Shown: piece after piece, positions 11,608 to 18,307 of the stretch
Numbering within the stretch: the first letter of the stretch is position 1
Layout of the letters: every line of letters starts with the position of its first letter
DNA from: Betaproteobacteria bacterium
GTDB taxonomy: Bacteria > Pseudomonadota > Gammaproteobacteria > Burkholderiales > Burkholderiaceae_D
Assembly: GCA_013287275.1 (NCBI GenBank)
Contig: JABDED010000012.1
Span: forward strand, 1-55,089
DNA length: 55,089 bases
Reading direction: 5' to 3'
Position numbers and translations under genes: made by a program
The notes under the pieces: model-generated
What the model was told of the DNA's origin: nothing
Seen by the model: only the letters and a program-made list of their open reading frames with translations
Database searches by the model: none

Positions 11608-12207
11608 TCATATCTCGTTGCCGATATTCGCGACAAGATCATCGATCGCCAGCGTAATCACCGAATCAATATTTTTGCTGGTGAGCATTCCGGAAAAACT
11701 ATCGCGTGCGGCCCCATATGCAGGATGGCCATCTATATTCACTTCGATGGAAACGTTCACCAGCTTGCTGGTGCGGAACGACTGGATTCCCTGTATCAGG
11801 AGCGAGGCCAATACCTGCGTCCCGATATTCGCCCGCGGCGTGCCAGCCGCCGATGCATCAAGCTGTCCCTGGTTGACGCCCGACGATCCTGGCCGGAAGA
11901 TTTTGACCGTAAACTCAACCAGCTTTATTTGTTTCCCGCTTAGCCTTAAAGACTGGCTGTGCTTCAATGCAGCGGAAACTACGCTCATCGGCTTAGGTTC
12001 CAGAGCATCGTCACCAAAGTAGACTGTCTGTCCATATTGCTCGGCCTCGCGCCTTGACGCCAAATTCTCAGGTAACCGCGCATCGACCAGCGAGAAGGAT
12101 GCCGGCTCCGCCGCCGGGATATTACCCACCCCATCCTCGGCAATGGCGCTGAACGCCAGTGTAGCCAACAAAATGAAAGCGAAAGCGAGTTGAGCAGGAC
12201 GGGACAT
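11608..12207 (-). CDS. Secreted protein of unknown function, 199 residues
   Basis: A signal peptide spans about residues 1-23 (hydrophobic stretch FAFILLATLAFSAIA, then EDG). The mature part has no family I recognise; it contains FSLVDARLPENLASRREAEQYG and KLVEFTVKIFRPGSSGVN. A short, generally similar secreted protein lies at 50803-51240 but the similarity is not strong enough to call a family. Ribosome site is weak. A broken gene lies just upstream on the same strand, so the two may once have formed an operon. Confidence 0.75.
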   Translation of the reverse strand: MSRPAQLAFAFILLATLAFSAIAEDGVGNIPAAEPASFSLVDARLPENLASRREAEQYGQTVYFGDDALEPKPMSVVSAALKHSQSLRLSGKQIKLVEFTVKIFRPGSSGVNQGQLDASAAGTPRANIGTQVLASLLIQGIQSFRTSKLVNVSIEVNIDGHPAYGAARDSFSGMLTSKNIDSVITLAIDDLVANIGNEI

Positions 12208-12258
12208 ATAAACGCCAGCAAGTGGTTATCAACGGTGAGCAAGCAGAGCACACGGCGC

Positions 12259-12589
12259 TCAGCCATAAGGTATGTAATCTTTGCCATGCGATATCCGTCC
12301 TATCACCTGGGTGATGTTTTCGGTGCTTTCGCTGAAGCTGGATGATATAAGACAGGTTCTTGATCTGTAGCAGCTCGTTGCAGTTGGCGTCCTTCAGCTT
12401 GAACGATGTAAAGGTGCCGCGGGTGGCGATATAGGTGGCCCAATCATATGTCAAGTTGGAGCCGGTCCAGTCCAATTGATCGTTCTGGCTGTGGCAATAG
12501 CCGGAGTTCGCATTCAGCGAATAATTGGTGAAACTGTCTGTCTGGTTGACAAGCTGCATACCCGCCCCGCACACCGTGATATCTGCCAC
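12259..12589 (-). pseudogene. Small gene apparently broken by one frameshift
   Basis: From a GTG at 12589 (with AGAGG eight bases upstream) a good-looking protein runs about 80 residues: VADITVCGAGMQLVNQ, then SQNDQLDWTGSNLTYDWATY, ending near NELLQIKNLS. Beyond about 12343 this frame becomes poor and continues into the signal-peptide region of the next gene. The adjacent frame instead gives SSSFSESTENITQVIGRI and stops neatly at 12259, 51 bases before the next gene. One inserted base would explain this. It is either a pseudogene or a sequence error; the family is unknown. Confidence 0.5.
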
Positions 12590-12857
12590 TACCGTGCCTC
12601 TGTAGTTACGGAAATTACAATGTTATCATTAGAACATATTTCTACATGCACAAGCGCAATAAAGAATGCCTTTCTGCCACTTATCTTTTGCTGCTTTGCA
12701 AAATGGATACGGTACAGGGCCTTTGCATTCGTGATATCTCGTCGTATATTACGAAATCAGGCACCATTTCACGGCTTTCATGAACAATCCGTCCGTTCTG
12801 AAAGCGCTCTGCCGCAATGGCCAATCCAATAGCAGACAAACCCAGGAGAAACAAACA

Positions 12858-13493: not shown

Positions 13494-13521
13494 TTGATTA
13501 TTTTGCAATCTCAATTAGAAT
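13494..13521 (+). promoter_or_regulatory. Probable sigma-70 promoter of the deaminase-like gene
   Basis: TTGATT (13494-13499) and TAGAAT (13516-13521) are separated by 16 bases in a markedly AT-rich stretch, 63 bases before the ATG at 13585. The palindrome TTGATATCAA at 13525-13534 directly downstream could be an operator. Confidence 0.5.
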
Positions 13522-13584
13522 GGATTGATATCAAAAATTAAATATTGAATATCAGGAATATCCCCAATTCTTCGAGAGGGCAGT

Positions 13585-14238
13585 ATGGACATCGTTGATT
13601 TCGTTGCCGAATATGTTCCTCCCCAGACAGCGAACAAGCAATATGCGGTGATGGCTTTTGACCTGAATCTGCAAGCGCATTACACTGCCCACCCTCCTCC
13701 GCAGCAGATGGCGGATTTTTCTTTTGATGTAAACAGCAATAGCGATTCCGGCCCATGGTGCGCTCCTGTCGTTAATTATGAGAAAAGCGGCACACTGCAA
13801 GGCATGGTGGACAATTCGAACCGCTTCAACAACCCCGGGCATATCCATCCCGAGGAATTGCTGATGAAGCTATTTGATCACTACCTCCTCAGATACTATG
13901 CCCGTTATAGACAAGCGCCTTCGAGTGTTGCGCTGTATTCATTCAACAGCCCCTGCGAGAATTGCAATACCTGCCTGCGGTATATGCCCGGCAACTCTTA
14001 CCAGGTGGAATTTGAAAAGACAGTCACCATTCCCCACTGGCTGTTGAAATTTGAAGAATGCTACTGCGATACAAACGTCAATCAGGACACGCTTGTCCAG
14101 AAGGAAGCTGAGCTTTACCAAGCCCAGTATAACGGCGACATGAAGGCCAGGACCGGCCGCTACCTGAGCGCAACTACCGCGATGAACAGGGCCCACGCCC
14201 TAAGAGGGTCCGGCTGGTCGGTGTACCAGATCGTTTGA
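13585..14238 (+). CDS. Orphan predicted nucleic-acid/nucleotide deaminase (AID/APOBEC-like zinc motif)
   Basis: A 217-residue cytoplasmic protein. Residues 86-91 read GHIHPE and residues 122-127 read SPCENC, i.e. the H-x-E and P-C-x-x-C zinc and catalytic motifs of the cytidine deaminase superfamily, with 33 residues between E90 and C124. The flanking pattern (HPEELLMKLFDHYLL, then SSVALYSFNSPCENC) resembles AID/APOBEC (HxELL ... SxSPCxxC) and the bacterial toxin deaminases more than the metabolic enzymes. H88, C124 and C127 would bind zinc and E90 would act as the general acid/base. No signal peptide and no fused secretion domain are seen. The start has GAGAGGG four bases upstream. The substrate and role are unknown; upstream DNA is AT-rich, which may indicate transfer. 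Confidence 0.6.
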   Translation: MDIVDFVAEYVPPQTANKQYAVMAFDLNLQAHYTAHPPPQQMADFSFDVNSNSDSGPWCAPVVNYEKSGTLQGMVDNSNRFNNPGHIHPEELLMKLFDHYLLRYYARYRQAPSSVALYSFNSPCENCNTCLRYMPGNSYQVEFEKTVTIPHWLLKFEECYCDTNVNQDTLVQKEAELYQAQYNGDMKARTGRYLSATTAMNRAHALRGSGWSVYQIV

Positions 14239-14307
14239 TCGCCGGCCTCGCCGGCGGGGCTTGATCTTCCCTTGCCTGCCATCCCTACCACCCCTGCATC
14301 AAAATAT

Positions 14308-14323
14308 TCAACCAATTGGTTGA
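14308..14323. promoter_or_regulatory. ArsR-family operator 1
   Basis: A perfect 16-bp palindrome TCAACCAATTGGTTGA overlapping the -35 box of the arsR promoter. It matches operator 2 in 14 of 16 positions and is centred about 40 bases upstream of it. Confidence 0.75.
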
Positions 14324-14347
14324 CAATTAAAATTCGCAAACTATAAT
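14320..14347 (+). promoter_or_regulatory. Consensus sigma-70 promoter of the arsR-SRPBCC-GST operon
   Basis: TTGACA (14320-14325) and TATAAT (14342-14347), both perfect consensus, with a 16-base spacer, 27 bases before the start codon. Two palindromes overlap its -35 end and lie just after its -10, the arrangement expected for tight autorepression. Confidence 0.85.
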
Positions 14348-14364
14348 TCAACCAATTAGTTGAA
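14347..14364. promoter_or_regulatory. ArsR-family operator 2
   Basis: An 18-base near-palindrome TTCAACCAATTAGTTGAA directly after the -10 box. It has the same CAACCAATTxGTTG core as operator 1. The two centres are about four helical turns apart, allowing two dimers to bind on one face. Confidence 0.75.
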
Positions 14365-14373
14365 TATAGCTTT

Positions 14374-16741: not shown

Positions 16742-18307
16742 TTACCGCTGATTACCATATACATACCAGCGGTCACCGTTCTTGATGAATTGTGTTTCAA
16801 CACGAATCTGGCCAAGTTCAGTCTGTACGATTGCTTTTACATAGGCGAGATTTCCTTCCTCACGAAATTCTGTGAGTTTCCATTCGTAGCTGCGGATGAA
16901 CGAAAATGCCCCCTCTAAAAACTCACTGCGCAAGGCGACGCGATCTTTGCCATCTCTTTTATAATTCACATGGTATTGCACCATAAGCTCGTCGATGTTG
17001 CTGCTACCCCAGGCAGCAGCGAGTCTGCCTAGCAATTGATTAACGCCGGCAGGGATCGTCAGAGTGGCAAGCGGTTGTATCGTAGCGTTTTTTGATTCCA
17101 GGGCAGACCACAGGCTGTAAGATTCCAACCCCATTGACTCATTGTATATATTCGCATTCCTGGCGACTCCTGTCTGCACCATCACGAGCTTTGAGCCGGG
17201 ATCTACATAGATCATCTGGCCGTACACGCCGATTAAGGCAAATCGCCGCTTCTCGCCGGGCATTATCCAGAACTGATAGCCATAGCCGAAGAGTCCGGTG
17301 GCTTTCCCTGGCCAGAATGCTTGCGGCTGACTATGCCAATCGGTCGCTTCCAGTAAATAGGATTTCGGCAAAATCTGGATTCCATTGAGCATGCCATCAT
17401 AGGCAAGCAGCGTACCCAGCCTGCCATAATCTCGCAAGACCGCGTTAAAACTTCCCTCGGCGGTCTCGTTTCCCTGCAGATCAATGCTCCAGGTAGCATC
17501 TTCCTCTGCACCCATTGGTTTCCACAACTTCTCGTCCATGTAGTCGGAAAGGGTTTTCTTGGTGGCAGATCTAATGACCAAGCCCAAAATACACGTCTGG
17601 ACCGATGCATAGTGGAAGCGCGTGCCGTCTTCTGTCTCACGTTGGTCAAAGGTCTGTATTGCTTCAACCAGGTTCCGTTTTCCCCAAATTTCGGCAAAAC
17701 GCGCAAGATCATCCTGGCCGCCATAGTCTTCTGTAAATTTGACACCGGACGACATCCGCAACAGGTTGCGCAGCGACGTGTCTCCATACGTATAACCCGC
17801 CAGTTCCGGCAGATATTTTGACGCTTTATCATCTAAAGAACCTATGCTCTTGTCTTCAAGCGCAAATCCTATCGCAAGACTGGTAATGGACTTCACCATT
17901 GAATGCGAAGTAAACCTGTCGCCAGGCTTGCGGTCATATTGATAGCGTTCAACCAGTATTTCGCCGTCCTTCAATATCAGCAGCCCGGTAATACGCTGAC
18001 GCTGCATGAAATCATCGATGGAATACGACTTTCCTTGGAATTCATAGCGAAGCGTAGGCTCTACCGGTGCCCTGCGCAGCATGCTTGGAAACTGCGCCCT
18101 TTCCAGCGTGCGGTTGAGAAGTATCTTGTCCAGATTAGAGAAGGAACCGACCCGCGTCGCTTCATCGTAGTACCAGTTTTTGTACGTTCCGTACGGATAT
18201 CCATGAGCCTTGCCGAGCAAAGCTTCATCGGGTGCCGCAGCAGTTGAATTTATAAACATGCAGAGCAGCAGCGCACCTGGCAAATACAACAGATTTGAAA
18301 ATCTCAT
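16742..18307 (-). CDS. Serine hydrolase, class C beta-lactamase / NylB-like, secreted
   Basis: A 521-residue exported enzyme. The signal peptide is residues 1-24. The beta-lactamase fold has the S-x-x-K motif at S136-M-V-K139 (SHSMVKS), the second-motif tyrosine at Y233 (FHYASVQT) and the third motif region GVYGQMIYVDP. The sequence around the motifs is like 6-aminohexanoate-dimer hydrolase (NylB) and esterase EstB relatives rather than true AmpC. About 120 extra residues at the C-terminus form a separate alpha/beta domain of unknown role. GC is lower than in neighbours and no ribosome site is visible, which hints at transfer. Confidence 0.88.
   Translation of the reverse strand: MRFSNLLYLPGALLLCMFINSTAAAPDEALLGKAHGYPYGTYKNWYYDEATRVGSFSNLDKILLNRTLERAQFPSMLRRAPVEPTLRYEFQGKSYSIDDFMQRQRITGLLILKDGEILVERYQYDRKPGDRFTSHSMVKSITSLAIGFALEDKSIGSLDDKASKYLPELAGYTYGDTSLRNLLRMSSGVKFTEDYGGQDDLARFAEIWGKRNLVEAIQTFDQRETEDGTRFHYASVQTCILGLVIRSATKKTLSDYMDEKLWKPMGAEEDATWSIDLQGNETAEGSFNAVLRDYGRLGTLLAYDGMLNGIQILPKSYLLEATDWHSQPQAFWPGKATGLFGYGYQFWIMPGEKRRFALIGVYGQMIYVDPGSKLVMVQTGVARNANIYNESMGLESYSLWSALESKNATIQPLATLTIPAGVNQLLGRLAAAWGSSNIDELMVQYHVNYKRDGKDRVALRSEFLEGAFSFIRSYEWKLTEFREEGNLAYVKAIVQTELGQIRVETQFIKNGDRWYVYGNQR

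What the first reader, a model, noticed from the sequence alone, without database searches (positions are those of the whole stretch)
13494..14238. Orphan bacterial deaminase with an AID/APOBEC-like zinc motif
A stand-alone 217-residue protein carries H-P-E (88-90) and S-P-C-E-N-C (122-127) at the spacing of the cytidine deaminase superfamily. The surrounding residues resemble AID/APOBEC and toxin-type nucleic-acid deaminases more than metabolic cytidine or tRNA enzymes. There is no secretion module, no immunity gene and no obvious pathway partner; the upstream DNA is AT-rich with its own promoter. It could be a mutator, a defence effector, a detached toxin domain or a small-molecule deaminase.
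Basis: partly seen in the sequence, partly recalled or inferred. Interest (0 to 1): 0.72.

Follow-up and report, generated by a model that had tools for sequence, protein, structure and literature searches.

The report
Lone divergent deaminase-like bacterial gene
This is a real bacterial gene for a protein with the zinc-binding signature of base-deaminating enzymes, but no relative turned up in the collections searched, so its likeness to the antibody-mutating AID/APOBEC enzymes is no stronger than that of ordinary deaminases and its job is still a guess.

Summary
The ORF (13585-14238, +, 217 aa) is real. It carries H88-P-E90 and S122-P-C-E-N-C127, sits in the coding-biased frame and has a ribosome-binding-like site. 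The best Pfam models are AID/APOBEC ones (APOBEC_N 24.3 bits, NAD1 23.3 for residues 66-152), all under their cut-offs. None of 20 shuffles that keep the motif reach those scores, so membership of the zinc deaminase superfamily is likely. The AID/APOBEC label is not specific: five other bacterial deaminases, housekeeping-like and toxin-type, score 17.6-26.9 bits with APOBEC_N. Unlike those five, this protein matches no family of its own. No homologue was confirmed in 392 genomes of its family, 398 of its phylum, two narrow genome-contig scans, three viral-contig scans, phages or plasmids. AlphaFold2 without relatives failed (pLDDT 31-32), so the fold is untested. No immunity, secretion or defence partner was recognised beside it. 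Best reading: a fast-evolving accessory zinc deaminase, probably acting on nucleic-acid bases and derived from the bacterial conflict/toxin pool.

The parts
13585..14238 (+). 217-aa deaminase-like protein gene (stop included)
   Evidence: APOBEC_N 22.5 bits for the whole protein, 24.3 for residues 66-152
13846..13854 (+). codons H88-P89-E90: inferred zinc ligand and catalytic glutamate
   Evidence: sequence; role inferred from the superfamily, not tested
13948..13965 (+). codons S122-P123-C124-E125-N126-C127: inferred zinc cysteines
   Evidence: sequence; role inferred, not tested
13575..13580 (+). AGAGGG, ribosome-binding-site-like, 4 nt before the ATG
   Evidence: sequence
13494..13521 (+). 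weak promoter-like match TTGATT-16-TAGAAT (9 of 12) in AT-rich DNA
   Evidence: not above the chance level of that scan

Best explanation
The gene encodes a divergent, stand-alone member of the zinc-dependent deaminase superfamily. Inferred chemistry: H88, C124 and C127 hold a zinc ion that activates a water, E90 shuttles the proton, and an amino group is removed hydrolytically from a base, most likely cytosine in a nucleic acid. Inferred role: an accessory, fast-evolving conflict gene, either a toxin-type deaminase domain that has lost its delivery module or an intracellular effector against mobile DNA/RNA, carried by few strains. Shown: a real gene, the motif, more likeness to deaminase profiles than the motif alone gives, no relatives in the searches made, no recognised partner genes, a poorly conserved neighbourhood. 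Not shown: fold, zinc binding, activity, substrate, role. I put superfamily membership near 0.8 and the full reading (nucleic-acid target, conflict origin) near 0.45.
For: Profile scores above motif-preserving shuffles: APOBEC_N 24.3 against a best of 14.5 in 20 shuffles, NAD1 23.3 against 19.7. Weak further matches are to APOBEC2, SNAD1, SNAD4 and the toxin family XOO_2897-deam, while dCMP_cyt_deam_1 is absent, unlike the three housekeeping-like deaminases scanned. Accessory setting: of 42 genus genomes searched with 7 kb of DNA, no scored match in the 41 others covers the gene (at most 7 candidates scored per genome). The molybdopterin-type gene before it is in 3 of 43 genus genomes, this one included, and in the two other carriers none of the other 14 window genes tested, this gene among them, lies in the 18-19 kb around it. 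GC is 0.51 against 0.57-0.66 in five neighbours with Pfam matches. Precedent: a stand-alone 321-aa ORF with a BURPS668_1122 domain over Pfam's cut-off exists in another genome of the family (L080), and bacterial toxin deaminases can mutate DNA (PMC7901873, passages).
Against: All profile scores are below Pfam's cut-offs. hhalign against four small bacterial deaminase profiles gave nothing better than shuffles that keep the motif. No toxin architecture, immunity gene or defence model was found for it. Low GC is not peculiar to it: nearby genes at 16742-18307 and 11608-12207 have 0.50 and 0.54. Nothing speaks directly to substrate. Without homologues, conservation of the zinc residues cannot be tested.
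Confidence: 0.45

Rival explanations
1. A small-molecule deaminase (nucleoside, nucleotide or pterin type) of secondary metabolism that has diverged beyond recognition.
For: Stand-alone, no toxin architecture; the neighbours with Pfam matches are ordinary metabolic or regulatory genes.
Against: No match to dCMP_cyt_deam_1 or MafB19-deam, which match a GuaD-type, a TadA-type and a third bacterial deaminase at 48.8-132.2 bits (type names by my reading); no pathway partner recognised; no NCBIfam match.
Confidence: 0.2
2. A genuine bacterial branch of the AID/APOBEC clade (helix-4 division), by common descent or by transfer from a eukaryote.
For: The top Pfam models are APOBEC_N, NAD1, APOBEC2, SNAD1 and SNAD4. 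By eye, the C-terminus looks like a helix followed by a last strand (residues about 192-217), as helix-4 deaminases end; inference only.
Against: APOBEC_N also scores a GuaD-type protein 26.9, a TadA-type 18.5, a third bacterial deaminase 19.1 and two BURPS668_1122 deaminases 17.6 and 19.6 bits. The whole-protein alignments end at residues 128-132, so the C-terminal half of the APOBEC models is not matched. A SNAD1 search of 300 order genomes put this gene (E 0.048) among noise.
Confidence: 0.12
3. Not a deaminase: an orphan protein whose HPE and SPCENC fell in place by chance or which binds zinc for another reason.
For: No homologue found; structure models at pLDDT 31-32; 3 of 20 motif-preserving shuffles also drew AID/APOBEC models, one at 19.7 bits; hhalign not above shuffles.
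Against: Chance motif about 4e-4; APOBEC_N E 3.6e-5, about 10 bits over the best of 20 shuffles.
Confidence: 0.18

Closest known systems
AID/APOBEC family models (Pfam APOBEC_N PF08210, NAD1 PF18778, SNAD1/SNAD4)
   Same: HxE then S-P-C-x-x-C at compatible spacing; best-scoring Pfam models
   Different: below cut-off; with APOBEC_N and NAD1 only residues about 66-132 align; five other bacterial deaminases score in the same range
BURPS668_1122 toxin deaminases (Pfam PF14424), stand-alone relative in L080
   Same: bacterial, nucleic-acid deaminase-type motif with PCxxC; a stand-alone copy exists in the same bacterial family
   Different: PF14424 is not reported for this protein; BLASTP to L080 only E 0.11 over 18 residues
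SsdA (BaDTF2) and DddA interbacterial DNA deaminase toxins
   Same: bacterial zinc deaminases with a nucleic-acid target
   Different: delivered toxins with immunity genes (PMC7901873, passages; partly recalled); no PDB sequence match here
AvcD, phage-defence dC deaminase with RNA antitoxin
   Same: bacterial deaminase outside housekeeping metabolism
   Different: no PADLOC match, no tandem repeats and no credible Rfam RNA upstream; PMC10511110, abstract and outline only
TadA / GuaD / CDA housekeeping deaminases
   Same: zinc motif and general superfamily
   Different: no dCMP_cyt_deam_1 or MafB19-deam match reported

Membership tests
Zinc-dependent deaminase superfamily | HxE and PCxxC in order and spacing | tested here: met
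   H88, E90, C124, C127; motif in 109 of 300,000 shuffles
Zinc-dependent deaminase superfamily | likeness to a deaminase profile beyond the motif | tested here: inconclusive
   APOBEC_N 24.3 bits against a best of 14.5 in 20 shuffles, but below the 25-bit cut-off; hhalign to four bacterial profiles not above shuffles
Zinc-dependent deaminase superfamily | alpha/beta deaminase fold with the ligands together | tested here: inconclusive
   single-sequence AlphaFold2, pLDDT 30.6 and 32.2
AID/APOBEC | Pfam family score over cut-off | tested here: not met
   best 24.3 against 25 (APOBEC_N), 23.3 against 27 (NAD1)
AID/APOBEC | scores clearly better than other deaminases with these models | tested here: not met
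   five other bacterial deaminases score 17.6-26.9 (APOBEC_N) and 16.5-25.1 (NAD1); one of the five is above this protein with both
AID/APOBEC | helix 4 between strands 4 and 5, which then run parallel | not testable with these tools
   no usable model; no homologues for an alignment
BURPS668_1122 / polymorphic toxin deaminase | family profile match | tested here: not met
   PF14424 not reported (the tool's filters drop most matches above E 0.1)
BURPS668_1122 / polymorphic toxin deaminase | delivery domain and adjacent immunity gene | tested here: not met
   stand-alone 217 aa; the genes on either side are Oxidored_molyb and ArsR, then AHSA1 and GST
Known anti-phage deaminase systems (PADLOC) | profile match | tested here: not met
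   0 families for this protein

The most novel reading that the evidence does not exclude
A free-standing bacterial nucleic-acid deaminase that founds a new clade close to the root of AID/APOBEC, acting inside its own cell on invading or single-stranded DNA/RNA rather than as a delivered toxin.
Probability: 0.1. Interest if true: 0.65.

Novelty: new member of a known kind. Interest (0 to 1): 0.3.

Why it matters
If it is an active nucleic-acid deaminase, it is a small single-domain enzyme outside the named families: one more sign that bacteria hold unclassified base-editing enzymes, and a candidate cytosine editor. The wider lesson is technical: sub-threshold hits to AID/APOBEC Pfam models do not identify AID/APOBEC relatives, because ordinary TadA/GuaD-type proteins give the same scores.

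Tried and rejected
AID/APOBEC membership from Pfam ranking: rejected as specific evidence after the controls.

Homologues: 14 of 392 family genomes have a match at E 0.1 or less, the gene itself among them; the 13 others are at E 0.004 or worse, 24-40% identity over parts, 10 of 13 with internal stops, and I took them as noise. The one other match in 398 phylum genomes (L070, E 5.6e-4, 4 stops) lies antisense to an ORF that reads like a sugar-nucleotide enzyme. Phages: two matches at E 2. Plasmids: none (DNA also none). Viral contigs three scans and genome contigs two scans, none confirmed; these use narrow peptide patterns and would miss distant relatives. NAD1 in 392 family genomes: 14 with a match. 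In ten of the 14 loci my script printed a motif ORF: this gene, three GuaD-type, one TadA-type, two other small deaminases, two within giant open frames (L075, L076) and L080; types are by my reading except L076 and L080. L071, L077, L079 and L081 showed no motif in that script and were dropped.

RNA antitoxin idea (as in AvcI): no tandem repeats, no fold signal upstream (z -0.84), and the four Rfam matches at E 1 or less are far below gathering scores and sit on the dyad at 14304-14367. hhalign to home-made TadA, GuaD, CD-like and toxin profiles: 13.4-20.7 for this protein, up to 23.3 for 6 motif shuffles and up to 19.7 for 12 other window proteins (L006 gave no domain, 34 of 35 loci used). 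Five paper searches were answered; none of the rows listed (10-25 of each larger set) looked like a description of this protein. They were not aimed at it and cover only the held open library. PMC11004436 was seen in passages and gave nothing on bacterial members.

Full report
The observation. The ORF at 13585-14238 (+) encodes 217 residues with H-P-E at 88-90 and S-P-C-E-N-C at 122-127. It is a gene by ordinary criteria: a 229-codon open frame, codon bias in that frame only (+0.217 bits per codon, the other five frames negative), GC at codon position 3 of 0.63, and AGAGGG 4 nt before the ATG. The HxE...PCxxC motif occurs in 109 of 300,000 shuffles of the protein.

What the sequence resembles. 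hmmscan of the whole protein gives APOBEC_N 22.5 bits (E 1.3e-4), NAD1 21.9, SNAD1 15.5 and APOBEC2 14.3, all under their cut-offs. Residues 66-152 alone give APOBEC_N 24.3 (E 3.6e-5), NAD1 23.3, APOBEC2 15.9, SNAD1 15.3, SNAD4 14.7 and XOO_2897-deam 12.2, again under the cut-offs. NCBIfam, PADLOC, PHROGs and the PDB sequences give nothing.

Two controls. First, the motif alone does not explain the score. In 20 shuffles of residues 66-152 that kept H88, P89, E90, S122, P123, C124 and C127 in place, 3 drew any AID/APOBEC model, with best scores of 14.5 (APOBEC_N) and 19.7 (NAD1). Second, the AID/APOBEC models are not specific. In 398 genomes of the phylum APOBEC_N rings in 49 at E 0.01 or less, this one included; 30 loci were taken, and the 29 besides this gene all hold a motif ORF that reads as a TadA-, GuaD- or related small bacterial deaminase (my reading of the sequences). 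Of these, three scanned in turn score APOBEC_N 26.9 (GuaD-type), 18.5 (TadA-type) and 19.1 (another), and two BURPS668_1122-type toxin deaminases 17.6 and 19.6. All five also match a family of their own over its cut-off. This protein matches no such family. It is therefore probably a deaminase but not demonstrably an AID/APOBEC one. hhalign of the single sequence against four small bacterial deaminase profiles gave no score above motif-preserving shuffles, which counts against closeness to any of them and adds nothing to the superfamily claim.

Relatives. None was found: own genome (56% complete by the tool), only itself; 392 family genomes, only noise; 398 phylum genomes, one spurious antisense match; phages by tblastn, two matches at E 2; plasmids, none; viral contigs, three pattern scans, and genome contigs, two, nothing confirmed.

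Structure. AlphaFold2 on the single sequence failed twice (217 aa, pLDDT 30.6; residues 57-217, pLDDT 32.2). No fold search was made with such models.

Surroundings. Upstream lies an Oxidored_molyb protein; downstream ArsR, AHSA1 and GST genes with a perfect consensus promoter whose ends overlap two copies of an 18-nt repeat. No secretion, immunity, phage or integrase family was seen among 19 other window proteins scanned with Pfam, of which 5 matched nothing. Of ten neighbouring proteins scanned with PADLOC, this one included, only the ArsR regulator matched (17 models, Csa3, CasR, CARF3 and PDC-M05A; by inference the shared HTH). The neighbourhood is poorly conserved: the molybdopterin gene is in 3 of 43 genus genomes, in the two others none of 14 further window genes tested is within the 18-19 kb around it, and a 7-kb DNA query found no scored match over the deaminase gene in the other 41 genus genomes, with at most 7 candidates scored per genome.

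Interpretation. The superfamily chemistry (zinc held by one His and two Cys, a glutamate as proton shuttle) is recalled knowledge applied to the motif. That the target is a nucleic acid rests on the lack of likeness to the metabolic families, on the single, apparently fast-diverged, accessory gene, and on the existence of a stand-alone BURPS668_1122-type ORF in another genome of the family (L080). PMC3482391 (passages) names deaminases as, after nucleases, the most common toxin domains acting on nucleic acids, calls those of endosymbionts fast-evolving, and speaks of standalone toxin cassettes; PMC8201067 (passages) says the SNADs may have come from bacterial toxins. PMC11754093 (passages) chose APOBEC_N as one of its two search domains, the model shown here to cross-react. 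None of this is direct evidence for this protein.

Verdict. An ordinary-looking orphan gene with a credible deaminase signature and no classifiable kin.

Noticed in passing
14304-14367: Two near-identical 18-nt palindromic repeats (20-nt inverted arms, 95% complementary) bracket a perfect TTGACA-16-TATAAT promoter ahead of the ArsR-AHSA1-GST genes: a likely operator pair of the ArsR regulator.
   Followed up: partly
12257-12633: DNA 72-86% alike, in two pieces, to part of a 311-aa ORF on contig C60 of the same genome (L087:790-1725); the window ORF is shorter and looks like a decayed paralogue.
   Followed up: partly
L080:369-1334 (-): Stand-alone 321-aa ORF with a BURPS668_1122 toxin-deaminase domain over Pfam's cut-off (31.5 against 29.6 bits), by eye with DSE in place of HxE, next to a chemotaxis-receptor-like ORF (my reading).
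   Followed up: partly
L075 and L076: Deaminase sequences within giant open frames (3486 and 4984 aa by the table) of two genomes of the family; the L076 domain scores 85.3 bits with PF14424, L075 was judged by eye only.
   Followed up: partly
16742-18307: Beta-lactamase-family (PF00144) protein with low GC (0.50) among higher-GC genes; another possibly acquired gene.
   Followed up: no
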